From assembly GCA_037447655.1 (NCBI GenBank), contig JBBHKE010002782.1:85851-149850 (forward strand): DNA of 64,000 nt, given 5' to 3'. This document shows positions 578 to 46,075 of this stretch, piece after piece. How positions within the stretch are numbered: position 1 is the first letter of the stretch; each line of letters starts with the position of its first letter. The stretch comes from Zygnema cylindricum. Taxonomy: Eukaryota > Streptophyta > Zygnematophyceae > Zygnematales > Zygnemataceae. The position numbers and the translations under genes are program-made. The notes below the pieces were generated by a model. The model was not told where the DNA came from, made no database searches, and saw only the letters and a list, made by a program, of their open reading frames with translations.

Positions 578-585
578 CCCCACTC

Positions 586-4197: not shown

Positions 4198-4221
4198 GGT
4201 AGGGAGAGCTTTCCTTAAGAA

Positions 4222-5130: not shown

Positions 5131-5133
5131 CTA
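5125..5133 (-). promoter_or_regulatory. Possible readthrough stop: UAG-CAA-UUC between protease and methyltransferase
   Basis: The protease frame ends in TAG followed by CAATTC, and the methyltransferase lies downstream in the same frame. E2 has the identical stop and following six bases (27334-27342). The TMV-type leaky signal is UAG-CAR-YYA, so this differs only in the last base. Function is inferred. Confidence 0.55.
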
Positions 5134-6913: not shown

Positions 6914-7018
6914 TTTAGAGGTTTCGCTCCATAGAATGGGACGGTAAGTATCCTTGGTTACTGGTGTCTTGTCCTCTCCCCTCCCTTCGTTGAGCTTTTT
7001 TTGCTGTTACAAGGTCCT

Positions 7019-7558: not shown

Positions 7559-7689
7559 CGGAATTCCGTGAATTCCTTGATGGTTGACTCGTTCGTCTCT
7601 GTGTAAAGGAGTCTCCAGATGTTAAGCAGGGTGGTACAAGGATTGGGATTGGCGACCATGGGAGTCGCTGCATGGGATTCCTGGATTGC

Positions 7690-8274: not shown

Positions 8275-8348
8275 TACTCCTCTATATCTAGGAGAGTATT
8301 CTTATTCCTTGATAACGTGAGCCACCGATGGGATGTGGAGATGAGGTC

Positions 8349-12166: not shown

Positions 12167-12191
12167 TTTTCTTTTATCTCTAGTTCCTGTG

Positions 12192-13375
12192 TGTCAAGCT
12201 CATGTGCTTTTCAAGCATGACTTTATATCACCAAGGATTTCCGAGCCCCTTTTTCCCTATACGGTCCTCAGAGTACGGATGAGTGAGTGCACCAAGCCGG
12301 ACGAGATCCTTGCATTTCCTAAATTGAGCGGAACGCACTTTATTTGGCGCCAAACGGAGGCCGGATGACAAAGTTCTACCGTCTCAACAATTGCAATTCC
12401 GTTACAAGGAGCCATTTGCCACCAGCCCCCGTGGGGGGTACATTGTGGATTGCCATGTAACTTTTCGGATTTGCATTTAGATTATGCTGGTAGCCGTCAG
12501 TAGGAATTTAGTTCAGTCTCAGCTGACTTTTTCTCCATTTATTACGTTAGGTCAAAGTCTGGCAAGTTAGTGTCATTTTCAGGATTTTGTCTTATAATTG
12601 TGGACCGAATAAATACTTCCGGCTGCAAATCTAGCCGCAGTCCGGAGCACAACTTTTTGCCTCGAGTGTAGTACGGATTAATTTGTCTTATATCAGTTCA
12701 ATTACACTTGCTTGCCGCTCATTGGTTAATAGCGTAGTTTTGACTTTTGGACTCGCAATTTGACAAACTTTGATGTATAAGGCACTTGGGGTCGAAGGAG
12801 ACAGGTTGCTTTTCAGTACTGTCTCCTGTGAAAACCCTCAGAAATTCCAACAAACCTTCTTTTGGAGAATCTTTGTGTTGTTTCGACTCTATTGCCATCT
12901 TGGTTTTGGATTTGTCTTTTGTGGAAGTCACAGTCCGGGCGGGTAGTTGGCAATATCCTCCTTTTTGGGTGATTTTGGACTTTTTGCTGTTTGGAACCGA
13001 GAAGAGTCTGGTCGGTTCCGAGCTGCGGACACCGCAGGTTGCGGGAGTACCATACCTTTTTGACAATACTATCGGGAGAGGGTTCGCCTTTTTCTCATTC
13101 TCATCGTTGATTGCTGGGGTATTTGAGCTTGTTTCTCTACATTTCACATTTTCTATCTTTTATTCTGTTTTCTGGGGCAAGGTGATATTGTTAAATCTGG
13201 AAAGCCAATCATATTTATTTATTTATATATATCTACGTGATAGTATATTTGTGTCTTCATCTAGAGTTCTCTTTGCTTTGGAGTTACGGTTCCAGAGTAA
13301 ACTGAAACCTCTCCCCCAGATCAGGACAGTGGGTTTTTAGGGAACAAATGCTATAGACTTCTTGTAGACAAAGCA
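12192..13375 (+). repeat. E2 terminal block A, first copy
   Basis: A 1184-bp block, repeated at 32193-35133 (apart from element X) and on the minus strand at 44401-45577. It starts TGTCAAGCTCATGTG and ends GACAAAGCA. In both E1 and E2 the internal region follows (AGTACT...). After the second copy in E2, block B follows instead. Short ORFs in it are not conserved as proteins. Confidence 0.75.
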
Positions 13376-13581
13376 CAGTACTGAAAAGCCACCCTCTCAG
13401 CTCGGATTTGAGGGGATAGGAGCTTGAACTTCGGAAGCTCTCTCTTTGGAAGTGAGTTCTAGATATATTCCATATTATTTCTCTCGTTTTCTCTGTCGTC
13501 ATGGGGGGAGGAGAGACTCCGGATAATGGAGCCGGAGAGCAGGGTCGATAGGAGAGGCTTGCCCAGGGGGGAAATACTCAA

Positions 13582-14778
13582 ATGGTCGAGGAGTCTGTAC
13601 CCATGGAGTGCGGATTTGATTCTCCTATCAAGGAACCAGCTTGTGCTTCTTCTCCTCCTCTTCCCCCAGACCTGACTCCCGAACATTACCCTTCCTTGGC
13701 GGAGGCCGCCAGGGCCTATGCTGAGGAAAGGAAGGAAGCCAGGGCTCAGGCCCACGAAAGGAACCGAGTGTCTCCCAGGGCCAGTCCAAAGCGCCAGGCG
13801 CAGAGGGAGCCCCATGTGGGTCCCCTTCCGGAGGTCGGGCTTCACACGCGATCGAGAATTCCCAGGCCGAGATCCAGATTGACCCCGCGGTTTTAAAGGA
13901 TCCACGTCACCCAGGTCGTAAAGAACTCCTCGCACTTCATGACCTCCATGACCTCAAGGTGAAGAAGGAGTTGGTACCGAGAATGGCTCGGACATATCGA
14001 GTCAGAGTGGTTAGACCCGTGGGAGGGGTGGTGGAGATTTTGAGCAGTTCTTCGGAGAGCAGCTTTTCACAATCGGTGCAGGACCAGTCCCCGAGAGCCC
14101 CCTATTCTCTCCCTCCCCTATCTTCCTCTCAAGACACGGCACCCACCAGACCCACCCGAGAAGGTACCTCTTCTCGGCCTCGTAGAGGAGAAGGGGGTAT
14201 CAAGAGGGAAACACGAGATCCATTGAGGGGGAAGAGGTTTGACCACCGTGAAAGCAATGGGAGATTTGCACCGCTTCCCAAGGAGGAGACTTCCCCAACT
14301 TCTATGTCCGCATCAACCGAGAAACTAGCTCCTGCACCACCGCGTGACATCTCACCCGAAGGGTTCTGGCGATCCGAACCAACTTATCTAGAGGTTCCGG
14401 GTACGGGACCAGAAGATTTGTCCGAGGGGTGGTGGTGGACCTGACCCAATGATCCCAAAATCCCGGGAATCGAGATAGCAGATCTTACCAAAGTAGTGGA
14501 AAAAGCCAAGGAACTAGTGGAGGTTCTGAGATCCCAGATACAGGCTACGGCGGGGGCCGGACCCGTCACAATAGATTGGGAGGCCTTAGAGGAAGAGAGG
14601 CGAAAGGCATGGGAACAGGAATTGACGCTCATTAGGGAAGCTCGGCGTAGGACAAGTGGGATTCTTAGCGGAAAGATTCCTCCTACACCAAAGATAGGGC
14701 CGAATTCAGAATTTCCCGCAGCGGGGACTTCACCTCTCGCCAGTACCCAGCGTGAAATGCCTTATTCAGAGCCAAGCG
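13582..14778 (+). pseudogene. E2 N-terminal ORF region, function unknown
   Basis: Fragments at 13582-13896, 13959-14444 and 14496-14778 match the E1 region 44191-41651 on the minus strand. Conserved pieces are PPDLTPEHY, a charged helix (AYAEERKEARAQAHERN), a Ser-rich stretch (VVEILSSSSESS), an Arg/Pro-rich stretch, and a probable coiled coil (KAKELVEVL ... DWEALEEERRKAWEQEL). No known domain was recognised. It precedes the capsid region by about 1.5 kb of element sequence, so it is either a long gag N-terminus or a separate first ORF. It is cut at 14778 by B1. Confidence 0.5.
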
Positions 14779-24519: not shown

Positions 24520-24725
24520 TGTAGAAATTATGGTCCGTTTAAAGTAATTTCTAGGTCTTAATAGAAATATAGAAAAAGTCAATGCAGTCTATCTCTAACT
24601 TCTCTCTCCAACTCTCAAACTTGTCGCAGTCACTGAGAAATTGGGAGAGGAAGCTAGAGCCATGGCTACCTTGGCTATCCTGAGGTTTACGGGAATTTTA
24701 TATTAGGGTTTATTTGTTTAATTAC
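24520..24725 (+). repeat. B2 3' LTR, first 206 bp only
   Basis: It starts TGTAGAAATTATGGTCC after AAAATAAGGGGAG and stops inside the region following the GCCATGGCTACC start. E2 gag sequence (ACAGGGCATGAAACTAC) follows. Confidence 0.7.
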
Positions 24726-25980
24726 ACAGGGCATGAAACTACAGGCGCAAGGAAGGGCCTATGTTAACCAGCTGCAGGCGATCCAGGAAGCCCAGGCAGC
24801 AACTCGCATGGTGGCCAACCCAAACCCTTGTACCACCCTGCTGAATATCTGGAGACACCTCTACACCGAGAGGAACGAGTCCGAAATCAAGGAATTCACG
24901 GAATTCCGATGTTTGTAGAACGAGACTCCCCAGACTCTTTTTAACCGGCTCTCCAGTCGCTGTCAAAAGACAAAGCTGTCCACGATTGATCTTCCGGCAA
25001 TGGCCACAAAATATTTCATCGCCGTCCGTAATTCTTTCGGGGTGACAGGGCAGACTGCACTGGACAATTGGATTGCCGGATAGGCAATTCAAGACATTAA
25101 TCCCTCAGCCAAGGACATTTCTCTGGTGGCCATAAAGTTATATGACCACCTCGTCTATAGTGAGGCAAAGGAGAAGGCCGTGACCGGCAAGGCCCGAGCA
25201 AATTTGGCAGGATTCGCTTGGGAGTCCTCTTTGAATGAGGAGGAACAGGCTGAACTTCAAGCTCCCCGAAAGCTTAAAGGGAAGCAAGTGGCTGACAGCG
25301 GGTCAGAGCCAGCTATGGGAGCAGATGAGCGGGTATTTCTCTATAATTGCCTGAATTGTCAGCAACCGGGTCATGGGTGGAAGCATTGCACCAAAAAACT
25401 TAAACCGGAGCTGGCTTTGAAACTTAAAGAATGGGAGAAAGAACGGGCAGAAAGAACCTTGAAACAACAAGAAAGGCTCAAGGGGGGGAGGGGAGAGGAC
25501 AAGACACCGGTAACCAAAGAAACTTACCGTCTAACTCCACGGAGCAAAACCTCTAAGATGTCCCAATCTCAGTTGCGGCAAATCAAACTTCCAAAGTTTG
25601 ATGACACCCAAATCTCCAACGAAATCCGGTGTAAATATACTACCGAGGGCGCCAAGTGCAAAGCTTGTGGATTTCTAGGGCATAAGGAAGGGCAATGTTT
25701 CCGGAAAAATGGAATACCCAAGGAAAAAATGCAGTTTCCTTTGTTTAATGGGGAAGGGGAAACCGCTGTTAACCCTCTACCCCTCCAACTCCTTTACCCG
25801 TGGGGGCGCCAACTTATGCCAACACCGGAGAGACCTGAGCCAGTTCCGGATGCTCCGGCAAAGTTTACGCCGGAGATCATTATACAGCAACAAAGTCAGC
25901 AGTTGGCCGCGATGGCTGCAGAGTTAGCTACCCTCCATTTGGGATCTTCTTCGCGGCCTTCACCTCTTACACCAGCCTAA
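24726..25980 (+). pseudogene. E2 gag with two CCHC knuckles
   Basis: 24733-24918 (MKLQAQGRAYVNQLQAIQEAQ...) and 25126-25980 are separated by stops. The second is open for 284 codons. It has the capsid-like helix (MAIKLYDHLVYSEAKEK) and two complete knuckles, CLNCQQPGHGWKHC and CKACGFLGHKEGQC, separated by about 80 residues of charged sequence. A Gln/Ala-rich helix follows (IIIQQQSQQLAAMAAELATL). This is the better preserved of the two gag copies. Confidence 0.75.
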
Positions 25981-26776
25981 TGACTCCAAAGGCAAAGACA
26001 GGAGTTGCTATAGAAGCTCGCGGAACTTGAGCTTCAAAGCACAAAGGGTGCCAATGATGATGACTTATTGGGCTGGGATTTGGAACCTCCAAATGCCCAC
26101 CATGCTTGAAGCTTCCCGTCCTGAGCTTGGAATGTTGGGGTAGGAGACAGTCGTCGTCAACTCCGCAACTCCACCTCCATGCAAAGACGAGTGGCAGAAA
26201 ATTGGTCAGAGGGATCACAACTGGAAAGCTACAGGGCCTTTGTCATTTACTTCCCGAGCCGTAATGCTGAACAACTACATTGGATAGGGAATCAAGCCCA
26301 CTCACCAACCATCTCTTCCTCCCAAACCTAAATTGCTTCATGGTTTCGAAAATTAGAAGAACGAAAAACAGCAGCGAGAGAAAGAGGTACTGGAACAAGA
26401 GGAAAAAGACTATCAGGACTGGTTTGAAAAGTATATGGCTGAACGCCCGGAGAATGATACCCCCCAAACACCTCCTGTTCCAGATTCCGACTCCGAGAGT
26501 GAGCAAGAAGGACAAGATCAAGATGAGCAAGAACCGAACTCATCTCCACCTTCACCAAAAGCAACGCTTCCCTCCTCCAAGCCGGTTGTCATGCTAGTCC
26601 GGCACCTCATGCTATATGCTCTCACACACGTGAAGACTCTGGCATCCTCCCACAACCTACCCGAAGAAATCCTCATTCAGGCATTGGGAGAGGAGATCCA
26701 CTCTGGAAGGGGGGTGGTAGACAAGACCACTCCGCCAACCGCATTATTTTTGTCCACCGATCTTAAAACCCTATAG
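25981..26776 (+). pseudogene. E2 gag-protease linker
   Basis: Degenerate stretch matching 5702-6559 of E1. The open part, 26435-26776, is acidic and Ser/Pro-rich (DTPQTPPVPDSDSESEQEG) and ends in the conserved MLVRHLMLYALTHVKTLASS helix. The protease starts in another frame at 26776, as in E1. Confidence 0.6.
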
Positions 26777-27336
26777 TGGATAGGGACTACAAAGCCTTAT
26801 CCGTGGCTCTCATACTGAACAGAACCGTGAACTTCAAGCTCAACAGATACGGAGGATACCAGGACGCTATGGTCGACACTGGAGCTCTCCCCAACCTCAT
26901 TACCACCTCCGCTTTCCAGAAGATGCTCGAGGAACTCCGGCCCGAAATCTGCCCAAGCAACATCTGCTTAAGCACCGTAAGCAGCGGCAGTCAACTAGTC
27001 TATGGGTTAATCAAGGCCATGGATATCGAGTTTTTGGATGACGGAGGCTAACGGGTGAAAATTGAGCTCCGTTTCTTGGTGGTGGAAGGGACTCAATTCG
27101 AAATTATTTTGGGAATGGCCACATGGACCCGGCTCAATATGAGTTTGAGCATGTGCAAAGAACAGTGTACCATCTGGGACCCCAAAAATTCGGAAGGAAC
27201 CAAAGTGGTGGTTCCTCTGGATTTATGGAACCAGGGAAAGACAAATGTCCCAGTGTCTGGATGCTACCCAGTGTACACAACATCATCTCTGACAAAAGTG
27301 TTTGGCAGTTCCACCGACATCGCCAAAGAAATCTAG
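26776..27336 (+). pseudogene. E2 protease
   Basis: It shows AMVDTGALPNLITTSAFQ (DTGA active site) and FEIILGMATWTRLNM. One stop (TAA at 27049-27051) lies in the middle. It ends at TAG 27334-27336, the same stop as in E1. Confidence 0.75.
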
Positions 27337-27342
27337 CAATTC
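27334..27342 (+). promoter_or_regulatory. Readthrough-like stop context TAG-CAA-TTC
   Basis: The TAG ending the protease is followed in the same frame by about 65 open codons before an apparent indel, then by the methyltransferase. The identical TAGCAATTC in E1 (5125-5133) suggests it was part of the active element rather than decay. Confidence 0.55.
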
Positions 27343-28510
27343 CCAATTTCCAAGCGGTGGGAAGAGGAATATAAGAATAGATTATTACAGGTAGCAAAAC
27401 TCCGGTGGGGTGTGGATCAGGCATTTTCAGCCTTGCCGTTAAAGGAAGCTACCTCACATCTAATGCTTCCAAACCCAAGACCAATAACAAGGAATTTAAT
27501 CGACAAGTGGTGTCATTGGCAGTTCCCGATTCTGGGCTGCGTATTTTATCTCTATTTTCAGGAATTAGTTCTGATTTGGAAGCGGTCTTGAAAACATGAT
27601 ATCTAGTGGAGTCATACACAGCCGTGGAAGTATCTCCCGAGGCTAGGGGTGTCAGCGAACATCGCCTCCACCAACTTCATCACCAATATCCTCAACAGCT
27701 TCCAGTATCCGCCTTCTCCAAAGCTCACCGTAGTCTTCCCCACAATGTAGAGAACATCATGGCGACCCACCTAGCCAGTTTGGGAAGAGTGGATTTGGTG
27801 TTGGCAGGCTGGCCTTGTCAAGGATACTCCCTAGCAAGACAAGGAAAAGGGCACCAAGACCGCAGAAGTGGAACCTTTTTTCGGTTGATCCAGTTAATCT
27901 CGGGGCTTCAACAGCTCCAGGAAACGCCGGTGGGGTACGTTCTGGAAAATCTCCACCCAGGAGATGATAAACGAAAACAGGTTGCACACATCTGGAATCA
28001 CGTAACCCGGATCTTAGGGGCTCCCTTAGTTTTCGACGCCGCACAGCTGGGATCCCTAGCACACCGAGTCCGGGCATATTGGACCAACATGATCCCGATT
28101 CCAGTCCTCCGACAACTGTTGGAGAAGGAAATCCCCGACCCGAAAAATTGCGTTCAGCAAATACTTGGGGAAGGTAGAATAGCCACACCTGTGACTCGAC
28201 CCGATCGCCCACCTTTCTTCCGGTGCAACAGACCGGGATTCCCAAGGAAAGCCCTCCCAACATTGGTCTCTTTCCCTCACAGTCACGCATATCGCAATGG
28301 GGCGGCAGGAATGATTTTTGACAGCAAAGGAGGACTCTAGACAACACCGACGATTGCCGAACGGTAAGAGGCAATGGGATTTCAGAAAGGAACAACGGCA
28401 GCACCAGGTATGTCAGACCTTTAGCGGTGCAGCCTTATGGGGCAAAGTATGAATTTGAATTCGGTCACATGGGTACTCAAGCATGCACTCGCCTTTTCTA
28501 GTCTCACGTC
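27337..28510 (+). pseudogene. E2 cytosine-5 DNA methyltransferase domain (Dnmt3-like)
   Basis: The full motif set is present. Motif I is ILSLFSGISSDLEAV (FSGI at 27555-27566). Motif IV is WPCQGYS (PCQ at 27813-27821). Motif VI is ENL (27945-27953, normally ENV). Motif VIII is HRVRAYWTN (from about 28062). A motif IX-like stretch is PTIAER...AMGF, and a motif X-like one is MGQSMNLNSVTWVL (about 28437-28480). Lesions are few and differ from E1: TGA at 27597-27599, TAG at 28338-28340, and a TAA in motif IX. The region from 27606 to 28340 is open for 244 codons. The catalytic Cys is retained in both copies. Expected product: a methyltransferase module released from, or part of, the Pol polyprotein. 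Confidence 0.85.
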
Positions 28511-29510
28511 CCCGGAATCAAGGGCTATTTACCTTCAAGCTCATCAGCTATTAGCGGTGCAGGCAACTTTACAGCTTGAGGGGGGGAGAGAAAGGAAAAG
28601 AAAAACTAAACTTCACATTTTACCGCCGCAGGTTTTCCTAGTGGGGGGGGACAACGGCTCCGATGGTGATACTCTAGCAAAAGTTGTCAGCAGCAGTGTC
28701 CTAGCCGGAGAGGTAGGGGCAGATCCAGCGGTAGGGTTAGAATTCGACATTAACCTCTGGGGTAGACCACAGGAAGCTTGGGCTGCCATAGAGGCGGGGA
28801 AATTGGATAGGACCCTGGGGGAGCAGTTGGACCCCCAACAAAAGGCGTGACTGTCGGAGCTATTGGCCAAAAACAAATAGGTGTTCTCATGGTGAGAAAC
28901 AGATGTCGGTATCTACAAAGGAACACCTTTCAGAATCGATTTGATGGACGAGACGGCTACTGTTTGGCAGAAGTAGTATCCTTTCAGTTTCAAGGAAAAG
29001 GAATTCATCACGGCTAAAGTCCAGACCTTGGTGGAAGCCAAATTGGTTCAGGAAAGTACCGAACCTCATGGGTTCGCTTCCCCGACAGTCCTCCCTCCCA
29101 AAAAAGACTCGTCCGGGAAAACTATAGATTTTCGGATGTGTGGAGACTATCGCATGCTAAACACGACCACCATCTTTGACCGGTATCCGATGCCGACTCC
29201 GGAAGAGATATTCAACTCTCTTGCAGGCGCCACTATATATTCCACTCTGGACATGAAGAATGGTTTCCACGAGATTGCAATGGAACCGAAGCATTGGGAG
29301 AGAATTGCATTTTTGGCGAGTTCCAGACTTTATGAATGGATTTACATGCCCTTCGGGCTTAAGAATGCACCGGCAAAATTCCAACTGGCTATGGACAAAG
29401 CACTTCGAGGAATCGATTTTGCCCGGTGCTATATTGATGATGTTATTATATTCCCAAAGACTTTTGATGAACACTTGGAGCATATCCAGATCGTTCTCCG
29501 GGCACTCTGA
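28511..29510 (+). pseudogene. E2 linker and reverse transcriptase
   Basis: The linker (28511-28850, AGEVGADPAVGLEFDINLWG) is followed by several stops. RT lies at 29028-29510 with FRMCGDYRMLNTTTIFDRYPMP, STLDMKNGFHEI, YMPFGLKNAPAKFQ and an intact YIDDV (29430-29441). It is therefore a better template for the RT active site than E1 (YIHD). A stop at 29508 ends it at the thumb. Confidence 0.8.
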
Positions 29511-29582: not shown

Positions 29583-30320
29583 GTGACACCCGGGACTGTG
29601 GGTCCCCACATGGTCAAGGTGGCAGCCCTGGACGCTCTTCCCTCACCACAGGACATCTCGGCCCTTCGCACTTTTCTGGGTTTGGCCAATTACTATCGGC
29701 CGTTTATCCCTAAGTTTAGTAGTCACGCCCAACCCCTTAACCAGCTACTGCGGAAAGACCAAGAGTGGCTGTGGGCCAAAGAACAACAGATCTCCTTCCA
29801 GTTCATAAAGAATGCTCTGAAGGAGCACCCCGTGCTCCGAATGCCTGATCACCAAAGACCTTTCCTCCTTTATACTAATTGGAGCAGGTTTGGATTGGGA
29901 GCGTTTCTGGCTCAAGTCGATGATGCCGGAGCTGAATATGTGGTGGCCTACGCCATCCATAGCAACAACAGGGCTGAGGGGAATTATAGCAGTTACCATG
30001 GAGAGTAACTCGCAGGGGTTTCGGCCATCCAGCATTTCAGGCCTTATTTGTACGGAGTCTATTTCACACTGATTACGGATCACCAACCCTTGATTTGGAT
30101 CATGGAAAATAGTAAGTTGAGCGGCAAACTCGCCAGATGGGTTCTTATCCTGCAAGGATATGATTTCGACATTGTTCATAGGGCAGGGGAGATCCATGGG
30201 AATGCCGACGGACTTAGCTGGAATCCTGATCCCCCCACCATGGATTCTACCGGGGCTCGGCATGATGAGGACCCTGAGATTAGCTTGGGAATCATTCGAG
30301 CCTCCTCCGTTTTCATCTAG
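29583..30320 (+). pseudogene. E2 RNase H
   Basis: 29583-30008 starts in the RT connection (FLGLANYYRPFIPKFSSHAQPL) and shows YTNWSRFGLGAFLAQ, with the first catalytic Asp changed to Asn. 30048-30320 continues with FTLITDHQPLIWIM and HRAGEIHGNADGLSWNPD. One stop separates them at 30006. Confidence 0.75.
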
Positions 30321-30414
30321 CTTCCCCCATCTGGGGGGAAACTATCAACTTTCCCTGGCGATGTGGAGGGGCAGACGCCCATAGGGGCCGGACGGAAGGA
30401 CAGTTGGAACGACC

Positions 30415-31364
30415 TTGATGTTCTCCAATTTTTTTCAGCAAGGGTCACCTCTTCCCCACTTGACTGGAGTTCCCTTATCCCGCGTACAGACCCGGATGGC
30501 TGCGTATGATTGGGACAAAGGTGTTCTCTTTCGGAAATGGTCAGACGGTGCGAGAAAAGTTGTTCCTCCCCCCTTTGACCGAGAAACTCTGATTTCAAAC
30601 TCCATCGGCAATGTGGACACTTCGGGTAAAAGCGGACCACTTCCCTGGTTACGGGCTTTTATTGGTGGCATGGGTTGCGGACTCAAGTCAACCGAATTGT
30701 GCAAACTTGCTCCTCATGCGATCACGTTAAGGCAGCTTTTGACAAGAAGGGCGGGACAGAGCTTCATTCGCTGCATATCCAAGGGATGTTTTATCGGTGG
30801 TCGTTCGATCTTTTGGGACCTCTTCCGACCAGCAGGCGGGGGAACGGTTTTGTGCTAGTCATGATAGAACATTTTTCCAAGTAGAACGAGTTGTTGGTTT
30901 TGCCTTGGAAGGAGTCCAAGGCAATTGCCGATGCCTTTTTGCTAAGGGTGCTGGCCCAATTCGGAGCGCCTGCGGAAGTACGGACCGACCAAGGCTCCGA
31001 ATTTGCCGGAGAATTTTCCAATCTCTTGGAAAAATGCTTGATTCACCATCGGCTGACCAGCCGTGACCACCCTCAAGCCGACGGTTTAGCCGAAAGGTGC
31101 GTATAGACACTGAAGCGGTCACTACGAAAATATACCGTGAAAGAAGATTTGGGGGAGTGGGACAGAAAAGTGCCTTGGATTGCTATGGGTTACAGATTTA
31201 GCAGGCAGGCTTCTCTCCACTCCTATAGCCCTTATTTTATTATATTTGGATTACATCCCATCTTGCTCGGAGCTGCATCGGCCCTAGCGGTGGTCATAGT
31301 GGAGATGGATGACAAAGGGACTGTCAAAAAATTGATCGCCGACAGGGCCAAGGTATTCCACTGA
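30415..31364 (+). pseudogene. E2 integrase, zinc finger and core
   Basis: Pieces in two frames: 30675-30884 (VNRIVQTCSSCDHVKAAF, RWSFDLLGPLP with the first Asp), 30891-31106 (LAQFGAPAEVRTDQGSEF, TSRDHPQADGLAERC with the second Asp and the Glu) and 31137-31364 (WDRKVPWIAMGYRFS, SPYFIIFGLHP). The three catalytic residues are all present. The frameshift before 30675 disrupts the first finger His. Confidence 0.75.
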
Positions 31365-31367
31365 GAT

Positions 31368-31890
31368 ATGCCTCTCGCCATGGGCAATTTGCAGGCGGCT
31401 AAACACCGAGATCAATTGTGGTATTCTCAGCGCCGGAGTGGGAATTATGTGCCCCGGCAGCGACAATTTATGATAAGAGACTTTGTATATCGAATGCAAC
31501 TGAAGAAGGACACGCCGGATATTTCTGCCGGGAGAGTAATATTGAAAGTGGTCGAGGTGTCCAACAAAGGGGTTCTTACATTGGAGGGGAAAGATGGTCG
31601 ACGAAAAAAGAGAATCAGTTCAATGTGGCACCCTGCCATCTTCGGGGATTGGAAGACGAACCAACTTTTCACTTAATTACTGTGCCGATCCTCTCTCTTG
31701 TTCATCAGCTTGCAATCAGTCTTCTGGCTGCACCACTTATTGATCTGCAATCAATGTGGTCAGTGTTGGCATTCAACCTGTCTCCCCTCCTCTTAGGAGC
31801 CACACCCTATACCCTCCTGCATCTGGTTTCTGTGGGAATTGCGAATGGAGCGGGTAATTCTTTCCATATCTTAGTCACGGTTGACTAAGA
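31368..31890 (+). pseudogene. E2 integrase C-terminus with PHD-like zinc finger
   Basis: The integrase tail (VILKVVEVSNKGVLTLEGKDG) is followed by a Cys/His module read in alternating frames: SCSSAC (31697-31713), CNQCGQCWHSTC (31746-31781) and CGNC (31831-31842) followed by EWSG and a stop. Spacing C-x2-C-x4-H-x2-C ... W-x-C-x2-C fits a PHD finger and agrees with E1. Single-base indels break the frame. The module lies immediately upstream of the polypurine tract, so it is the natural C-terminus of Pol. Confidence 0.65.
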
Positions 31891-31906
31891 GGGGGGGAAA
31901 ATTAGG
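31890..31906 (+). promoter_or_regulatory. E2 polypurine tract
   Basis: AAGAGGGGGGGAAAA just after the end of pol and directly before block B. E1 has GAGTGGGG at the same site. It marks where plus-strand priming would begin, that is, the expected start of U3 in block B. Confidence 0.65.
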
Positions 31907-32190
31907 ATATTAGCCATATTACCGAGACCCTAGTTTCTTCCCCCGGCCAAGGGGGGGGGAGAGGAAGGAGGAGGGGATAACTTTCTCCTTCCCCTTTGCC
32001 CTCAACCATATTCCTTGCTCATGCCTCTCTCCTATTTTTTTGCATGCATATCCATGGGAGGGAGGCGCGCAGCAATGGGCATGATCATTATTTTGGGAAG
32101 CCCTCGCCTTCAAGGTGTATTTGCAGGACTCCAATGCCGACGACTCTGGGCTGTGGGCCCTTCCCCCATGTTAATCAGGCACGCTCAACA
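31907..32190 (+). repeat. E2 block B, internal copy
   Basis: Starts (A)AATTAGGATATTAGCC after the polypurine tract and ends CTCAACA. Two bases (AC) then separate it from TGTCAAG of the second block A. The B-AC-A junction is a near-palindrome. Confidence 0.75.
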
Positions 32191-32192
32191 AC

Positions 32193-35133
32193 TGTCAAGC
32201 TCATGTGCTTTTCACACATGCCTTTATATCACCAAGGATTTCCGGGCCCTTTTTTCCCTGTACGGTCCTCAGAGTACGGATGAGTGATTGCACCAAGCCG
32301 GACGAGATCCTTGTATTTTCTAAATTGAGCGGAACGCACTTTATTTGGCGCCAAACGGAGGCCGGATGACAAAGTTCTACCGTCTCAACAATTGCAATTT
32401 CGTTATAGGGAGCCATTTGCTGTTGTTTTGGAAACCTTGAGTTCTCTCTATACCTTGCTGCTATGCTGCCATGCTGCGCTAAGTCTTGTTGTTTTTAGAA
32501 TGCTTTAGTCCTCTTTATGCCTCAGCTGTGAGAGAGAGCTGTTCAGGACTTAAGCTATTTTTGGTTGAGTTCGGTTCAGTACTTACCGAAATTAGTGTGA
32601 TAGTGAAGTTGGGAGTTCACGGTTCATTCACACTTGGGACACGTGTCGTCACTTGGGAGAATGCGTGAGTATGTCCTCCGTGGACGTACGGAAATTCGGC
32701 AGGACCACTGGACTTCGTGAAGTCAATTCTACGGTGCCAAATCCTCTAATCGGACCGCTGACAACCGCCGCCAACAAATAGTGATGAGGCGTGACTAGAT
32801 CATTATCACTTTACGTTGTCTGAACTTCGGTGTAAATATTTGTGATAGAATGTTAGATGTATGGCTGGAATTCCTCCGTACAGCTTAGTGTAGTTTCGGT
32901 GTATAAAAGTAGGACTTAGTGAATTTGATTTTTAGGAACAAATGATATGAAAACTGTACACTCAGTTTTATGTAATTTCATTTCTACATATCTCACAGAT
33001 TTGTCAGCGGAATTAATTGAAATTTTGTGTTTGTGTTCCTTTTTATGTTATCTACATTGTGGCAAAGTTTCAGAACGTTTGAAGGATATTTCTGAAAGTT
33101 ATAGTCTGTCAAAGTTTCTGTTCAGCCATCGGTATTTGTGGAAGCTTCCTCTCTTGATTTGTTCTACGATGACTACAGCTGCATCTTCTTCATCTTCAGT
33201 ACCAGCACTTGTCTCAGGAGAACAAGTCTGACAGCGCAGCTAGAAACCTTGAGCACTCTACACTTGTTGCTGTGCTCCTATGCTGCTCTGATTTGACATC
33301 GCAGCTGCGCTGCTCTAATATCACAACTGCGCTCATAGATCATAGCAGTCATAGCAGTCGTAGCTGAGTTATAGCAGCTATAGCAGTCTGCGCAAGAAAG
33401 GTGTTTTGAATATGAGTCAGTTTGTGTGAAGATAAATTGACGGGGACATGATTTAGTGAGTATGTTACTCGAAAGGGAGTACACAGATTCGGTGCACTTC
33501 AGGCACACGTGTCGGTCCGTGAGAAAGTCAAGTTTGGTTGTTCTTGAAGAAAAGGTACAGTTACATTTGAGGACCAAAGTTACACGTGGAGGTTCATCTT
33601 CGGTGATGAAAGAATACGTGGAAAGCGGACGAAGTCCGCCGTCATTTTTGAAGAGAAGTATTGACTGTAGCGTCATTTCAGCGGACAAACTTTAATCGCG
33701 TACTATTTCATTTCTAGCGGCTGTCTGATTGGTGTAAATAATTATGTGCATTCGACGGTGGGATTTTGTTAATGAAGAAGTAGTGTACCAATTGACCATG
33801 CTAGTTGTAGTACGGTGTGATCAACTGTAGGCTCACTTGTATATATAGGACTTAGATTACTTTAGGAAAAGTAGGATTGTTGTGTAGAAAAAACTGCGAA
33901 GCAGTTTTTGGGTGTGTTTGAATTATAAGATCATCGTGATCTTTTGTCAGAACTTTGTGAAATTCTGCATGTGGTTTATTTGGTGTATATTTTATATTAT
34001 GGCAAATTTGCAGACCTAGGGTGTGTCAAGTTTGCTTGGGGCTTCATTGTGAAGTTGGTTGTTTGTGGGATTTTGTGAGAGTTTCCTCTTTGCACAATTG
34101 ATTATCATGGCAACTGCCGGTGCTTCTTCATCTTCTTCAGTGGCACCAGCTGCCTCAAATCAACATTTGCCACCAGCTCCTGTGGGGGGTACATTGTGGA
34201 TTGCCACGTAACTTTTCGGATTTGCATTTAGATTATGCTGGTAGCCGTCAGTAGAAATTTAGTTCAGTCTCAGCTGACTTATCGTCCATTTATTACGTAA
34301 GGTCAAAGTGTGGCAAGTTAGTGTCATTTTCAGGATTTTGTCTTATAATTGTGGACCGAATAAATACTTCAGGCCGCGGATCTAGCCGCAGTCCGGAGCA
34401 GAACTTTTTCCCCGAGTGTAGTACGGATTAATTTGTCTTGTGCCAGTTCAATTACACTTGCTTGCCGCTCATTGGTTAATAGCGTAGCATTGACTTTTGG
34501 ACTCGCAATTTGACAAACTTTGATGTATAAGGCACTTGAGGTCGAAGGAGACAGGTTGCTTTTCAGTACTGTCTTCGTGAAAACCCTCAGAAATTCTAAC
34601 AAACCTTCTTTTGGAGAATCTTTGTGTTGTTTCGACTCTATTGCCATCTTGGTTTTGGATCTGTCTTTTGTGGAAGTCACAGTACGGGCGGGTAGTTGGC
34701 ACTATCCTCGTTTTTGGGTGATTTTGGACTTTTTGCTGTTTGGAACCGAGAAGAGTCTGGTCGGTTCCGAGCTGCGGACACCGAAGGTTGCGGGAGTACA
34801 ATACCATTTTGACGATACTATTGGGAGAGGGTTCGCCTTTTCTCATTCTCATCGTTGATTTCTCGGGTATGTTGAGCTCGTTTCGCTACATTTCACATTT
34901 TCTATCACATTTTCTATCTTTTATTCTGTTTTCTGGGGCAAGGTGATATTGTTAAATCTCGAAAGCCAATCATATTTATTTATATATATATCTACGTGAT
35001 AGTGCATTTGTGTCTTCATCTAGAGTTCTCTTTGCTTTGGAGTTACGGTTCCAAAGTAAACTGAAACCTCTCCTCCGGATCAGGATAGTGGGTTTTGAGG
35101 GAACAAATGCTATAGACTTCCGTAGACAAAGCA
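32193..35133 (+). repeat. E2 block A, second copy (interrupted by X)
   Basis: Without the 1745-bp element X and its duplicated 5 bp, this copy is about 1190 bp, the same length as the first. It ends GACAAAGC/A and runs directly into block B (AAATTAGGATATC) instead of the internal region. Confidence 0.75.
32421..34165 (+). mobile_element. X: 1.75-kb solo-LTR-like insertion with a duplicated LTR-like structure
   Basis: It runs TGTTGTTTTGG ... TCAAATCAACA, flanked by TTTGC (32416-32420 and 34166-34170). Inside are two diverged units. Each has GAAACCTTGAG near its start, a TATA box followed by GGACTTAG (TATAAAAG at 32902, TATATATA at 33840), and an ATG opening a Ser/Ala-rich peptide: MTTAASSSSSVPALVS from 33169 and MATAGASSSSSVAPAAS from 34107. 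The second peptide is open to the end of X, like the in-LTR gag start of family A. X is therefore probably a solo LTR from a copia-like element whose LTR carries a duplicated promoter-leader module. Confidence 0.65.
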
Positions 35134-35422
35134 AATTAGGATATCAGCCCTATAACTGAGACCCTAATCCCTTCCCCCACCTAAAGGGGGGGGAGGAAGG
35201 AGGAGAGGATAACTTTTTCCTTCCCCTTTGCCCTCATCCCTATTCCATGCTCATGCCTCTCTCCTATTTTTTTGCATGCATTTCCATGGGAGGGATGCGG
35301 GCAGGAGTGGGCATGATCATTATTTTGGGAAGCCCTCGCATTTGGGGATTATTTGCATGACTCCAATGCCGACGACTCTGGGCTGTGGGCCCTTCCCCCA
35401 CGTTAATCAGGCACGCTCGACA
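35134..35422 (+). repeat. E2 block B, terminal copy
   Basis: 289 bp, AATTAGGATATCAGCCC ... GCACGCTCGACA, ending exactly at the TGTG target duplication (35423-35426). Confidence 0.75.
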
Positions 35423-35426
35423 TGTG

Positions 35427-41403: not shown

Positions 41404-42570
41404 CTTGGGGAAGGGTTGGTGGCGGAGAAGGGGACGACTGGAGGCTCTGGGGAGAAGGTGTCTGTCTCTGGAAAGGTGTGTGTCTCCTTGGTCGCGTTCT
41501 AGAGGTCTCGGGAGGAGGAGTCTTGGAGCTGGAGGATGGGGAACGTCGGTGAGGAGGTGAGTAAGCGGAGACGTGCTTGTAAGGTAAAACAAGAGGCTCC
41601 GGAGACCCTCGGACTGCTGCAGTGAGAGAAACGGATAGTGAAGGGCAGTCTCAGGGCTTTGTAGTAGGACCTGGGGAGGGAGAGGAATGAGGAGGAGGAG
41701 AAGATGGGAGATCTGGAGATGCTCTTAGAGGTGAAGGGGGAGTTGTCGGCCTCAAGGGAATGTGAATTCTCTTGTCCGGTCGTAACTCCACCAAAGCCTC
41801 CACTGCCAAAGACAACTCCACCGAGACAAAGGTTGTCTCTTTCTGGGGAACCGCAGTAGACTCAGTAGGTAAATCTATACCCAAACCCCTCCTGTTAGGT
41901 CCTGTTGTTCCCCTCCCTTCGCGCTGAAGAGGAGGCTCTTGGCTGGGCCCGGAAGAAGGAACGTCGGGCTGTGTTCTTGCAAGAGGAGAAGTTCCCAGAG
42001 CATGTGCTTTGGCATGAGGCTCGGTCTTCGGTGTAAGAGGGGTTTGCCCGCTTAGAAACCCACTAGTCCTACGTCGAGCTTCCCGAATAAGCATCAATTC
42101 CTGTTCCCATACCTTTCTCCTTTCTATCTCCAAGGCCTCCCAATCTACGGTGGCAGGTCCGTCCCAGGCGGTAGCGTGTTCTTGCGATTTTAGAACCTCC
42201 ACTAGTTCCTTGGCCTTTTCGACCACTTTGGTGAGATCCGCCATCCCCATCTCTAGAATTTCCGGATCATTGGGTCTGGTCCGCCACCTTCCCTCGGATA
42301 AATCTTCTGGTCCCGTACTCGGAACCTCTGGATTAGTTTATTCGGATCGCCAGAACCCTCTGGCAGGGCGGTCACGAGGTGGGGTAGGAGAAGTTCTCTT
42401 GGTTGATGGTGACAGTGGAGTAGGGGATGTCTCCTCCTTAGGAAGAGGTGCAAATCTCCCTTTGCTCTCCCAGTGGTCAAACCGCTTTCCTCTCAATGGA
42501 TCTCGAGCCTCCCTCTCGCTTACCCCTTCTCCTCGACGTGGCCGCAAAGAGGTGCGCCCTCGGGGAGGTC
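41404..42570 (-). pseudogene. E1 N-terminal ORF region, second part
   Basis: Main open part 41651-42250: a probable coiled coil (VEKAKELVEVLKSQ, DWEALEIERRKVWEQELMLIREARRR) followed by Pro/Ser/Thr-rich sequence. It matches E2 14496-14778 and extends it. Frames shift at 42253-42570 (Arg/Pro-rich, RPRRGEG). No known domain. It is interrupted at 42570 by the solo LTR. Confidence 0.5.
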
Positions 42571-43640
42571 TGAAACTCTGAGACCTCCATAAGTCCTCAA
42601 AGTGACTAGCTTCTAAGAAGCCTCTAAGATAACTCTGACCACTTTGTGTTTCAGCAAGAACAATTGCCACCCTGGCAGACAAAAACTTTGACCATCTTCA
42701 CCCTTGTGAAGGCAAGACTCCCCTGAGTCGATAGCAAAAAGAATCTCTGAATTTGCTCCCCTGAGCAGTAAGTCATGGAGGGTCAAAGTTGACCTTTAGT
42801 ACAGAAGCTCTCTGCGAGAGAGGGTCCTATCTCCTAATTTCTCTAAGTCCTATCTCTCTCACAGACTCTATCTGCTGATGTACTGAGCAAATCATATTCC
42901 ACTTTCGTACACAAAAGTACAGCTGCCGGTGTACTTTTTGTACGGACATTGTATGACTTGGCCTAAATGTCGACACGTGGTATATCCGGATTGCTCCCTT
43001 AATCCTCGGAGATGCCGCGATCGAATGTTATTCTGCCACGTGTCATTCGATGTGGGGATGACCACAAACCGCCGAAATCCTCTTCCGCGATCTCGGCGTT
43101 CATTCCGGCCGTCGGATTAAATTCACATTTAATCGTAGCTGTAAAAAATACCCGCGCGGTATTCGTTTCGCTAAAGAAACAAATGTGCGGTATTCGTTTC
43201 TTTATCCGTACCACAATTCGTACTTTTACATTACTGAATCTATGTATCTCGTAAATTGTTTCAGTTAAAGGAATTAGCCTACTTGGTAATGTATCATTTA
43301 ATATCAAACCCAATAGTACGTAAAACTAAGTCTTAACTTAAAAGGCAAGGCTACCGGCTACCGGCTGATTACCGTCCGGCAGGTACCAGGATCAAATCCT
43401 GGGTGCAACACAGATCCTTTTAGTAAATAAACCTCTAACGGTAAATAAACTAATATATATATTTCCCGTAAACCCCTAGATAGCCTAGGTAGCCATGGCT
43501 CTAGCTTCCTCTCCAATTTATCAGTGACTGCGACAAGTTTGAGAAGTTGGAGAGAGAAGTTAGAGGTAGATTGCCTCGATTTTTTTCTATATTTCTATTT
43601 AGACCTAGAAAATACTTTAAACGAACCATTAATTTCTACA
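42571..43640 (-). mobile_element. Family-B solo LTR in E1
   Basis: 1070 bp, TGTAGAAATTAATGG ... CTCAGAGTTTCA on the minus strand, flanked by AGGTC (42566-42570 and 43641-43645). No internal copia sequence is present, so it arose by LTR-LTR recombination. It carries the tRNA-like module at 43331-43412 and retains the in-LTR gag start ATGGAGGTCTCAGAG. Confidence 0.85.
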
Positions 43641-43645
43641 AGGTC

Positions 43646-44400
43646 TACTGGCTGCGGTATCCTGAGAGTGAGATGGAGGAGGGCGAGAATAGGGAGCTCG
43701 TGGTGACCTGTCCTGCACCGATTGTGAAGAGCCACTCTCCGAAGAGCTGCTCAAAATCTCCACCAGCCCTCCCACGGGTCTAACCACCCTGACTCGATCT
43801 GTCCGAGCCACTCTTTGTACCAACTCCTTTTTCACCTACAGCTCATGGAGGTCGTGAAGGGCAAGGAGTTCCTTACGACTTGGGTGACGTTCAATCTGAA
43901 TCTCAGCCCGTGGAATCTTGGATCTGGTGTGAAGCCCGACCTCCGGAAGAGGACCCAAATGGGGCTCCCTTTCCGCCTGCCGCTTGGCCGGGCCTGGGGA
44001 GGCACTTGGTTCCTTTCGTTTGCCTGAGCCCTGGCTTCCCTCCTTTCCTCAGCATAGGCCTCGACGGCCTCCACCAACGAAAGGTAATGTTCGGGAGTCA
44101 GGTCGGGAGGAAGAAGAGGAGAAGAAGCATCAGCTCGTTCCTTGATCGAAGAATCAAATACGAACTCTATGGGTACAGGCTCCTCTGACATTTGAGCCTT
44201 TTTCCCTCCTGGGCAGGCCTCTCCTGCCGACCCTGCTCTCCGGCTCCATTATCAAGAGTCTCTCCTCCCACCACGATGATAAAGGGAACGAGAGAAATAA
44301 TATGGAATATCTCTAGAACTCACTTCCAAAAAGAGAGCTTCCGAAGTTCAAGCTCCTATCCCCTCTAATCCGAGCAGACAGGGTTGCTTTTTAGTACTAT
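43646..44400 (-). pseudogene. E1 N-terminal ORF region, first part
   Basis: 43832-44191 is open from ATG (MSEEPVPIEFVFDSSIKE): the start, PPDLTPEHYLSL and the charged helix YAEERREARAQANERN are shared with E2 13582-13896. 43646-43835 continues in another frame with the Ser-rich VVEILSSSSESG. It is the first ORF after block A; its function is unknown. Bases 44192-44400 form the leader, including AGTACT just after block A, where a primer-binding site would be expected. None was recognised. Confidence 0.5.
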
Positions 44401-45577
44401 GCTTTGTCTACGGGAAGTCTATAGCATTTGTTCCCTCAAAACCCAATGTCTTGATCCAGGGGGAGGTTTCTGTTTACTCTGGAACCGTAACTCCAAAGCA
44501 AAGATGACTCTAGATGAAGACACAAATGCACTATCACGTGGATATATATACAAATAAATATGATTGGCTTTCCAGATTTAACAATATCACCTTGCCCCAG
44601 AAAAGAGAATAAAAGATATAAAATGTGAAATGTAGCGAAACGAGCTCAACCTACCCCAGCAATCAACGATGAAAATGAGAAAAGGGCGACCCCTCTCCCG
44701 ATAGTATCGTCAACAATGTATGGTACTCCCGCAACCTTCGGTGTCCGCAGCTCGGAACCGACCAGACTCTTCTCGGTTCCAAACAGCAAAAAGTCCAAAA
44801 TCACCCAAAAAGGAAGATAGTGCCAACTACCCGCCCGGACTGTGATTTCCACAAGAGACATATCCAAAACCAAGATGGCAATAGAGTCAAAACAACACAA
44901 AGATTCTCCAAAAGAAGGTTTGTTGGAATTTTTGAGGGTTTTTATAGGAGACAATACTGAAAAGCAACCTGTCTCCTCGACCACAAGTGCCTTATACATC
45001 AAAGTTTGTCAAGTTCAAAGTCCAAAAGTCAAAGCTACGCTATTAACCAATGAGCGGCAAACCAGCGAAATTAAACTGACAATAAACAAAATAATCCGTA
45101 CTACACTCGGGGCAAAATATTTTGCTCCGGACTGCGGCTAGATCCGCGACCGGAAGTAATTATTTGTTCCACTGTTATAAGACAAAGTCCTGAAAATGAC
45201 ACTAACTCGCCAGACTTTGACCTAAGGTAATTAATGGACCACAAGTCAGCCGAGCCTAAACTAAATTCCTGCTGACGGCTAACGAGATAATCTAGAAGAG
45301 CATCCAAAAAGTTACGTGGCAATCCACAATGTACCCCCCCCGGGTTTGTGGCAATGTTTCCATGTAACCGGATGGTAATCTTTGAGACGGTATAACTTGG
45401 TCGTTCGGCCTCCGTTAAGCGTGAAACAAAGTGCGTTCCGCTCAGTTGGGAAAATCCAAGAATTTGGTCTGACTGGGTGCACTCCTTCCGCCGTACAGGG
45501 ATGACCGTAGTGGTTGGAAAGGTCTCGGAAATCCTTGGTAATATAAAGGTGGGCTTGTAAAGCACATGAGCTTGACA
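44401..45577 (-). repeat. E1 terminal block A
   Basis: 1177 bp, TGTCAAGCTCATGTG on the minus strand to GACAAAGC. Its start is at the TACT duplication (45578-45581). It aligns with both E2 copies. Confidence 0.75.
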
Positions 45578-46075
45578 TACTTTATAGTTCTAAAATTATA
45601 GTAGCGAAACGATAAAAATATATTAGATTGTAAATTTGTAAAATCTAACTTTTTCGAAAACCAGACGAACAAAGCAGACGAACAAATCAGTCAGACATGC
45701 GCCAATAATTGCCATTTATAAAAAAATATCAGTCAAAAGGACATTCTCGAAAGGGTACCCAAGTAAAACCCCCTTAAAATATAAATAATAAAGTAAATAT
45801 CGCGATAGATCAAGGGGAACAGGGTCCGCGACGCGTCTAGGGAATAACACGTACAGTTGAGTGTACTGGCCATACATTTATCTGTACGGTCCGTACAAGT
45901 ATCGCCGATAGTTATCGATATCAGTGTTATCGCCGATAATAAACAATAAATATCGGGTATTTATCGGCGACAACACCGAAAAAGATTTATTGTACCAATA
46001 TATCAATTATCAGTTACTCCAAAAAAGGCCCGTATCGGTTATCGACAAATTCTTACCGATACACAACACAAGTAA

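What the first reader, a model, noticed from the sequence alone, without database searches (positions are those of the whole stretch)
27337..28510. A cytosine-5 DNA methyltransferase is built into the Pol polyprotein of a gypsy-like retrotransposon
Both copies (E2 27337-28510; E1 5130-3983 minus) carry the ordered motifs of a C5 methyltransferase (FSGI, PCQ with catalytic Cys, EN-V/L, RxRxYWTN, motif X GQSMxLNSVTWVL) between protease and RT. The domain is in frame with RT (E1 reads from motif IX through RT without a stop). Each copy is broken by different stops, so the frame was open in the ancestor. An element that carries its own writer of the mark normally used to silence it could methylate its own cDNA or the host genome. 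From memory, methyltransferase-bearing retrotransposons were reported in dinoflagellates and charophytes (de Mendoza and colleagues, 2018); whether this family is one of those is unknown to me.
Basis: partly seen in the sequence, partly recalled or inferred. Interest (0 to 1): 0.95.

Follow-up and report, generated by a model that had tools for sequence, protein, structure and literature searches.

The report
Retrotransposon carrying its own DNA methyltransferase
A large family of jumping genes in this unidentified eukaryote carries its own enzyme for tagging DNA with methyl groups and a domain that probably reads histone tails, so a DNA parasite holds tools that cells normally use to silence such parasites.

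Summary
Confirmed and extended. The domain between protease and RT is a Dnmt3-type C5 methyltransferase (PF00145 2.9e-7 and 1.3e-7; model pLDDT 94, the 50 listed PDB folds all DNMT3). It is no one-off: 59 of the 60 RT copies nearest to E2's have it just upstream. It evolved under purifying selection, and at least one open, very recent insertion exists. Closest known: KnitGypsy-Dnmt3 of Klebsormidium nitens (de Mendoza 2018), DIRS-like repeats included.

New here, as far as searched:
(1) E2 is one nested element, 12192-35422, built A1-gag-pol-B1-A2-B2, with TG...CA ends and a 4-bp target duplication; this suggests a DDE integrase opening end-joined cDNA at the B|A palindrome.
(2) UAG CAA UUC between protease and methyltransferase in 15 of 17 rows, a probable readthrough site.
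(3) A PHD finger behind the integrase.
(4) A young subfamily with ECQ for PCQ in the catalytic motif.
(5) Three relatives with bryophyte names.

Host species unidentified. Function is inferred; the K. nitens enzyme gave no methylation in yeast (inconclusive).

The parts
12188..12191 (.). left target-site duplication TGTG of element E2, in an older copia
   Evidence...CCTGTG|TGTCAAGC; the uninterrupted copia copy at 39885-39930 reads GCTGTGACTGC
12192..13375 (+). A1, left terminal repeat of E2 (starts TGTCAAGC)
   Evidence: 95% identical to A2
13376..14777 (+). leader and gag N-terminal part of E2, before the nested copia insertions (14778-24721)
   Evidence: 14147-14777 matches 42572-41942 of another left end (E4)
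24722..26600 (+). gag remainder of E2 (ORF 25084-25980)
26640..27333 (+). aspartic protease part of E2 (counterpart of E1 5131-5835)
   Evidence: the E1 piece hits Asp_protease_2 at 0.0033, below cut-off
27334..27336 (+). conserved in-frame UAG, followed by CAAUUCCC; probable readthrough site between protease and methyltransferase
27501..28502 (+). Dnmt3-type C5 methyltransferase domain, copy E2 (stops at 27597, 28338, 28365, 28422)
28977..29510 (+). reverse transcriptase of E2
   Evidence: RVT_1 1e-19
29640..31888 (+). RNase H, integrase and PHD remnant of E2, pol stop TAA at 31886-31888
   Evidence: alignment to E1; E1 pieces hit RT_RNaseH and H2C2, and rve below cut-off; PHD by comparison with open copies
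31889..31899 (+). polypurine tract GAGGGGGGGAA
   Evidence: sequence
31899..32190 (+). B1 repeat, ends GCTCAACA
   Evidence: 89.7% identical to B2
32191..32192 (+). 2-nt spacer AC at the B|A junction
32193..35132 (+). A2 repeat, holding a 1.74-kb insertion (about 32420-34164)
35133..35422 (+). B2, right terminal repeat of E2 (ends GCTCGACA)
35423..35426 (.). right target-site duplication TGTG
298..8350 (-). element E1, gag to B, right end at 298; left part cut off at about 8350
3958..4959 (-). Dnmt3-type C5 methyltransferase domain, copy E1 (stops at 4959, 4851, 4224)
5131..5133 (-). same conserved UAG, copy E1
2953..3483 (-). reverse transcriptase of E1
   Evidence: RVT_1 2.4e-18 in 2782-4218
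1108..2463 (-). RNase H end, integrase zinc domain and integrase core (rve 2.4e-5, below cut-off) of E1
589..800 (-). PHD-finger remnant at the C-terminus of E1 Pol
   Evidence: by eye against open copies
41651..45580 (-). third copy (E4): left end only (A1 45580-44400, leader, gag), split by a copia LTR at 42570-43640

Best explanation
This is a multi-copy Ty3/Gypsy retrotransposon family that long ago captured a Dnmt3-type cytosine-5 methyltransferase into its polyprotein and kept it under selection. Shown by sequence: order gag - protease - UAG - methyltransferase - RT - RNase H - integrase - PHD finger, inside split direct repeats A1 ... B1-A2-B2, with TG...CA ends and a 4-bp target duplication. 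Inferred: (1) the UAG is read through at low rate, so in this family the methyltransferase is made with Pol rather than with Gag. (2) Reverse transcription gives cDNA of form B-A-internal-B-A, running from polypurine tract to primer site; its ends are joined, and the DDE integrase cuts at the palindromic B|A junction GACAGCTGTC and inserts A-internal-B-A-B. (3) The methyltransferase acts on this double-stranded cDNA or on the insertion site, so the new copy arrives CG-methylated and passes as host DNA. (4) The PHD finger steers the integrase to nucleosomes with a particular H3 tail, probably H3 without K4 methylation. Confidence: what it is, about 0.95; repeat architecture 0.9; UAG readthrough 0.7; cDNA or insertion-site methylation 0.4 (lowered from 0.45 after reading that the K. 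nitens enzyme gave no methylation in yeast); PHD targeting 0.45.
For: Methyltransferase: PF00145 in both window copies. PDB sequence hits led by DNMT3A, 3B and 3C; then, for the E1 domain, DRM2 and 4onj (recalled as tobacco DRM), then HhaI. AlphaFold pLDDT 94.1, pTM 0.93 for the domain of genome copy L010; the 50 listed of 1217 PDB fold matches are all DNMT3 entries, TM 0.62-0.70 by query length; the five best viral C5 enzymes reach 0.58-0.61. Integral part: 59 of the 60 nearest RT places. Selection: E1/E2 substitutions 33/30/70 at codon positions 1/2/3 of the domain; median dN/dS 0.25 in 19 usable of 105 pairs, RT 0.15 (22 of 91), integrase 0.10 (15 of 45); in the ECQ subfamily 0.11 for the two pairs of L019 and L020 with L008. 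Recent activity: one copy with a 2395-aa frame without stops, A1 = A2 over 931 bp, B1/B2 99.6%, TSD TTGG. Repeats in E2. B|A palindrome also in the distant element L084. UAG: TAG in 16 of 17 rows, next codons CAATTC in 15 of 17, wobble bases of CAA and TTC constant in all 17; L084 has TAG CAA TCA after its methyltransferase, an exact type I readthrough context UAG-CARYYA (PMC5382211, passages). PHD: 1.5e-9 in L019 and 4.3e-10 in L084, over cut-off; nearest PDB PHDs include PHF12, KDM5, BAZ2B, PHF21A, ORC1B, ATXR5. Catalysis in the kind: the isolated DNMT domains of two SymbioDIRS-Dnmt3 copies methylated CG de novo in yeast (PMC5890265 section 10).
Against: In the same yeast test the K. nitens KnitGypsy-Dnmt3 and SymbioLINE domains gave no methylation; the authors call this inconclusive because human DNMT3B also failed. 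No methylation, expression, translation or binding data exist for this genome here. Both window copies are dead. Target duplications were found in 2 of the 4 copies tested (E2, L019); L010 and L023, which end at B without A2-B2, show none, so the end model is not general. The readthrough context in the E family is CAA UUC, one base off CARYYA, and L019 has no such stop. The PHD of the E subfamily is below Pfam's cut-off (0.0044 in L010). No tRNA primer site was recognised after A1 (by eye). The ECQ subfamily has lost the near-invariant Pro of motif IV. Elements without a methyltransferase also transpose (Discussion of PMC5890265).
Confidence: 0.75

Rival explanations
1. Self-restraint: the methyltransferase methylates the element's own copies so that the host silences them, which limits copy number and sustains both partners.
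For: CpG decay: of 410 aligned places with CpG in E1 or E2, 187 keep it in both and 123 are CG against TG or CA; for GpC 313 of 468 are kept. Offered as one option in the Discussion of PMC5890265.
Against: Host enzymes could methylate these copies anyway. The family is large (2908 RT candidates, 150 of them scored), so restraint is weak. CpG depletion is no stronger in E1/E2 (0.64-0.69) than in the copia elements of the window (0.47-0.60).
Confidence: 0.2
2. The domain is kept for binding nucleic acid or SAM, or for RNA methylation, not for DNA methylation, at least in the ECQ subfamily.
For: Motif IV reads ECQ instead of PCQ in 7 of 83 covered rows and ECK in 1, including a very young open copy, with dN/dS 0.11 against L008. 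The related K. nitens domain gave no methylation in yeast, judged inconclusive.
Against: The catalytic Cys is kept in 82 of 83 covered rows. Two SymbioDIRS-Dnmt3 domains do methylate CG in yeast.
Confidence: 0.17
3. The shared UAG is an inherited inactivating mutation, or the boundary to a separately started ORF, not a readthrough site.
For: No direct evidence of readthrough; the L019 copy has a single frame without it.
Against: TAG in 16 of 17 rows over two subfamilies about 50% alike, in copies otherwise open on both sides such as L010, with constant wobble bases in the next two codons. L084 has the same arrangement at another place.
Confidence: 0.25
4. A chance match or a one-off insertion of a host gene fragment.
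For: None found.
Against: Profile, fold and family-wide presence.
Confidence: 0.01

Closest known systems
KnitGypsy-Dnmt3 of Klebsormidium nitens (de Mendoza et al. 2018, PMC5890265; abstract, sections 9, 10 and 11 and found passages read)
   Same: Dnmt3-type, unpermuted methyltransferase in the Pol ORF of a Gypsy LTR element; purifying selection; figure legend states that the repeats are arranged as in DIRS.
   Different: Another genome (352.8 Mb), large family, at least three subfamilies. The held text has 0 hits for 'PHD', and its one 'stop codon' hit concerns Symbiodinium LINEs. The figures were not seen, so a PHD may be drawn there.
SymbioDIRS-Dnmt3 and SymbioLINE-Dnmt of Symbiodinium (same paper)
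   Same: Retrotransposon with a DNMT in its coding region; SymbioDIRS has two sets of repeats, A and B, in the DIRS arrangement.
   Different: Those are tyrosine-recombinase DIRS elements or LINEs. Here the integrase is rve (DDE) and the ends are TG...CA with a 4-bp target duplication.
Chromoviruses (Gypsy elements with an integrase chromodomain; recalled)
   Same: Chromatin-reader domain at the integrase C-terminus.
   Different: Reader is a PHD finger, not a chromodomain, and a DNA methyltransferase is added.
Animal DNMT3A/B
   Same: Catalytic domain fold and sequence; reader plus writer in one protein (ADD domain, recalled).
   Different: 20-24% identity to the L010 domain; motif IV PCQ instead of PCN; reader is a C-terminal PHD far behind RT and integrase.

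Membership tests
Ty3/Gypsy LTR retrotransposon | Pol order PR-RT-RNase H-integrase with rve core behind RT | tested here: met
Ty3/Gypsy LTR retrotransposon | TG...CA ends and 4-6 bp target duplication | tested here: met
   met in 2 of 4 copies tested: E2 TGTG, L019 TTGG; not found for L010 and L023
Ty3/Gypsy LTR retrotransposon | Two identical LTRs at the two ends | tested here: not met
   ends are A1 and B1-A2-B2
Ty3/Gypsy LTR retrotransposon | tRNA primer-binding site behind the 5' repeat | tested here: inconclusive
   none recognised by eye after A1
DIRS-type element | Split direct repeats A1-B1-A2-B2 | tested here: met
   E2 and L019
DIRS-type element | Tyrosine recombinase, no target duplication | tested here: not met
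   rve instead; 4-bp duplications
Dnmt3-type methyltransferase | Nearest to DNMT3 among C5 enzymes, motifs in canonical order | tested here: met
   no tree with reference DNMT3, DRM and DNMT1 was built
Dnmt3-type methyltransferase | De novo methylation of DNA | not testable with these tools
   no bench or bisulfite data; the K. nitens counterpart was inactive in yeast, judged inconclusive by its authors
KnitGypsy-Dnmt3 | Dnmt3 in Pol of a Gypsy element with DIRS-like repeats | tested here: met
   against the text of PMC5890265
KnitGypsy-Dnmt3 | Common descent with the K. nitens sequences | not tested
   the K. nitens sequences were not at hand
Type I stop-codon readthrough | UAG followed by CARYYA | tested here: inconclusive
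   E family UAG CAA UUC (last base differs); L084 UAG CAA UCA fits exactly

The most novel reading that the evidence does not exclude
The element is a self-contained reader-writer parasite. A PHD finger on the integrase reads the H3 tail, a Dnmt3-type enzyme writes the DNA mark, and integration proceeds from end-joined (circle-like) cDNA cut by a DDE integrase at an internal palindrome, so that new copies enter silent-type chromatin already methylated. The young ECQ subfamily has changed the catalytic motif of the C5 enzymes while keeping it under selection.
Probability: 0.28. Interest if true: 0.88.

Novelty: new variant of a known kind. Interest (0 to 1): 0.72.

Why it matters
Cytosine methylation is a main defence against transposons. 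A large, recently active element family that keeps its own Dnmt3-type enzyme and a probable histone reader under selection asks what a parasite gains from the mark that silences it. The genome offers many copies of different age, open and broken, with and without the catalytic Pro, so the question can be tested by comparing methylation of young and old copies. The relatives named Sphagnum, Calypogeia and Marchantia (3 of 75 proteins), if they too are element-borne, which I did not test, would extend the kind to bryophytes; a 2019 opinion paper states that methylase-bearing transposons are not present in land plants such as tracheophytes (PMC6338049, passages). The repeat structure gives a concrete, testable model of how split direct repeats and a DDE integrase can work together.

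Tried and rejected
Host identity: window tRNA and Rfam scans were empty. MatK gave no match, and that search rang in no control either. A protein search with a copia polyprotein gave 5016 hits, the 120 listed at 32-47% identity from many sources, no help. A GRAS-family search and a pattern count of B|A junctions did not complete. So the host is only an unidentified eukaryote of 352.8 Mb; streptophyte is a guess from the three named relatives.

Ordinary paired LTRs for E1/E2: none found in the window; this led to the split-repeat reading. Gag-to-protease frame: E1 and E2 differ by one-base gaps there, so whether a programmed frameshift exists was left open. Right ends were looked at in 9 copies: 6 run on from B into A2 (E2, L006, L012, L017, L018, L019) and 3 stop at B (E1, L010, L023). 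Deletion by B1 x B2 recombination would keep the target duplication, which was not seen in L010 or L023; unexplained. A scan of viral contigs with the single protein found no relative; with the alignment it found 37 loci at 22-57%, generic phage-type C5 enzymes by my reading; the filtered output showed no other element parts in them. Literature: searches listed, by title and start of abstract, no paper on the PHD, the UAG, bryophyte relatives or a DDE element with split repeats; they cover open-licence papers only and I opened none of those listed. PMC12344493 (passages) calls the streptophyte elements Copia; my domain order says Gypsy.

Rows dropped: the dN/dS medians use only pairs with 0.02 < dS < 0.8 (MTase 19 of 105, RT 22 of 91, IN 15 of 45). 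One pair, L007-L015, gives 1.95 on 15.5 N and 2.5 S changes, and L019-L020 0.32 on 1 and 1; three of the six ECQ methyltransferase pairs have saturated dS. The gag columns (18/36/18) were counted in the pol frame and say nothing. The tree holds 61 of 92 rows, those covering at least 72% of the domain. The 17 rows leave out L008, L009, L014, L019 and L020 (other subfamily, or domain start missing) and L011 (no element); L005/L006, L012/L013 and L023/L024 do not differ in the tree, so the rows are not independent.

Full report
1. The stretch between protease and RT matches PF00145 in both copies, and the PDB chains nearest in sequence are DNMT3A, 3B and 3C; HhaI, and for the E1 domain DRM2, are weaker. 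Motifs I, II, IV (AGWPCQG), VI, VIII (HRVRAYWTN), IX (AERE.AMGF) and X (GQSMDLNS) stand in canonical order, so this is Dnmt3-type and not the permuted DRM form. An AlphaFold model of the domain of an open genome copy (L010) has pLDDT 94.1 and pTM 0.93; the 50 PDB folds listed are all DNMT3 entries, and viral C5 enzymes are less alike.

2. It belongs to the element. In the host genome (352.8 Mb, 2689 contigs, no name) PF00145 has 123 scored matches out of 782 candidates, the E2 methyltransferase 150 listed out of 1646 candidates, and the E2 RT 150 out of 2908. All counts are lower bounds. Of the 150 RT places, 73 have a listed methyltransferase place 587-1052 bases upstream. For the 60 RT places that score best against E2 (at least 83% identity), 40 were paired in the lists; of the other 20, whose 1.15-kb upstream stretches I fetched, 19 carry methyltransferase sequence, some only in part. 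That is 59 of 60; the exception is L041. The other 57 unpaired places of the 150 were not looked at.

3. It was under selection. Between the dead copies E1 and E2 the domain differs at 33, 30 and 70 sites at codon positions 1, 2 and 3 (351, 351 and 350 sites counted in frame), compared with 25/25/38 of 206/206/205 for the RT piece. Among copies, median dN/dS is 0.25 for the methyltransferase (19 of 105 pairs), 0.15 for RT (22 of 91) and 0.10 for the integrase core (15 of 45). Neutral decay after insertion raises all these figures.

4. Structure of E2. A copia element is interrupted at the same point at window 12191|12192 and 35422|35423. Both edges carry TGTG, and another copy of that copia reads straight across. 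Between them lies one element: A1 (12192-13375), leader and gag, nested copias (14778-24721), gag, protease, methyltransferase, RT, RNase H, integrase, polypurine tract, B1 (31899-32190), AC, A2 (32193-35132, with an insertion) and B2 (35133-35422). A1/A2 differ by K2P 0.05 and B1/B2 by 0.11, so the insertion is old. E4 (45580-41651, minus) is a second left end beginning with the same TGTCAAGC.

5. A young copy confirms this. On contig C1344 (L025, L019, L026) A1 is 85514-86444, B1 94737-94978, spacer GC, A2 94981-95911 and B2 95912-96154. A1 and A2 are identical over 931 bp, B1/B2 are 99.6% alike, the target duplication is TTGG, and the reading frame is 2395 aa without a stop. At the A2|B2 joint the end of A meets only GGG of the polypurine tract. 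The B|A junction is a palindrome, GACAGCTGTC, in L006, L018, L019 and L084, an element of another, unknown organism; L012, L017 and E2 differ from it by one or two bases. The simplest reading is that cDNA runs B-A-internal-B-A, its ends join, and integrase opens it at B|A after CA, which gives A-internal-B-A-B. This is inference. Copies L010 and L023 end at B and show no matching duplication, which the model does not explain.

6. Conserved UAG. The TAG shared by E1 and E2 occurs directly between protease and methyltransferase in 16 of 17 aligned rows (one TAA, L021). The next six bases are CAATTC in 15. The wobble bases of these two codons are the same in all 17 rows, whereas those of the three codons that follow agree in 59, 82 and 100% of rows. 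L010 is open on both sides, with 1520 aa of pol after the UAG. L019 has no stop there (single frame). In L084 the UAG stands after the methyltransferase, followed by CAATCA, an exact CARYYA (definition in PMC5382211, passages). So the methyltransferase lies on the Pol side in the E family and on the Gag side in L084.

7. PHD finger. Pfam finds a PHD finger at the C-terminus of the integrase in L019 (1.5e-9) and L084 (4.3e-10), and below cut-off in L010 (0.0044). Its Cys/His pattern is visible in L006, L010, L012, L014, L018 and L023, in L017 with one Cys changed, broken in L015, and as remnants in E1 and E2 (by eye). The nearest solved PHDs include PHF12, KDM5 (lid), BAZ2B, WSTF, PHF21A and ORC1B. 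Several of these bind H3 unmethylated at K4 (recalled), as does the ADD domain of animal DNMT3 (recalled).

8. Subfamilies and relatives. An alignment search found 75 proteins, among them Sphagnum troendelagicum (P0025), Calypogeia fissa (P0056) and Marchantia polymorpha (P0075); whether these three lie in elements was not tested. In a tree of 61 rows the 59 retrotransposon-type rows stand apart from 2 bacterial rows (P0076, P0077), and the host rows fall into three groups, two of them sisters. Motif IV is PCQ in 73 of 83 covered rows, ECQ in 7, ECK, PCK and PYQ in 1 each. The ECQ host group includes the youngest copy seen and has dN/dS 0.11 in the two pairs with L008; other ECQ/ECK rows sit in a second clade, and the fork between the two is unresolved. 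L084 is a 9.3-kb contig filed under a Synechococcales MAG; it carries gag to PHD of this family at 45-51% identity over its two longest Pol matches and its ends overlap by at least 39 bases, so it is most likely misbinned eukaryotic DNA.

9. Comparison. De Mendoza et al. 2018 (PMC5890265; abstract, sections 9, 10 and 11, passages) report Dnmt3 in the Pol of a Gypsy element of Klebsormidium nitens, with DIRS-like repeats and Ka/Ks below 0.2. In yeast, domains of two SymbioDIRS-Dnmt3 copies methylated CG de novo, while those of KnitGypsy-Dnmt3 and SymbioLINE-Dnmt did not; the authors call the latter inconclusive, as human DNMT3B also failed. This family is of the KnitGypsy-Dnmt3 kind. I could not test common descent. 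I found no mention of the PHD in the held text, and none of the PHD, the UAG or the bryophyte relatives in the listings of searches; the figures were not seen.

10. Verdict. A real, selected, recently active methyltransferase-bearing retrotransposon family: a new variant of a known kind, with an unusually testable anatomy. What the enzyme does for the element is still open.

Noticed in passing
window 14778-24721, 35423-41393, 53606-60018: Dense nest of copia elements; one (about 53606-60018) has an 812-aa open Pol frame (56537-58975) and LTRs 99% alike (53606-54637 / 58987-60018).
   Followed up: partly
window 48157-49439 and 50627-51901: A 1.28-kb direct repeat, 99% identical, not identified.
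   Followed up: no
L008, L009, L019, L020; P0023, P0041, P0051, P0067: Motif IV of the methyltransferase reads ECQ (or ECK) instead of PCQ, in two clades of the tree (P0051 was not in it), under purifying selection in the host subfamily.
   Followed up: partly
L084 (CADCWO010000201.1, 1-9197): A Gypsy-Dnmt3-PHD element filed in a Synechococcales MAG; probably eukaryotic contamination; its ends overlap.
   Followed up: partly
L010, L023: Copies ending at B without A2-B2 and without matching target duplications; unexplained.
   Followed up: partly
L016 (4462-5463 and 8145-9142, counted on the reverse complement of the locus): Two methyltransferase-bearing copies follow each other on the same strand 3.7 kb apart.
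   Followed up: no
L011 (C514): A PF00145 match in 35% GC DNA without element parts; perhaps an exon of a host methyltransferase.
   Followed up: no
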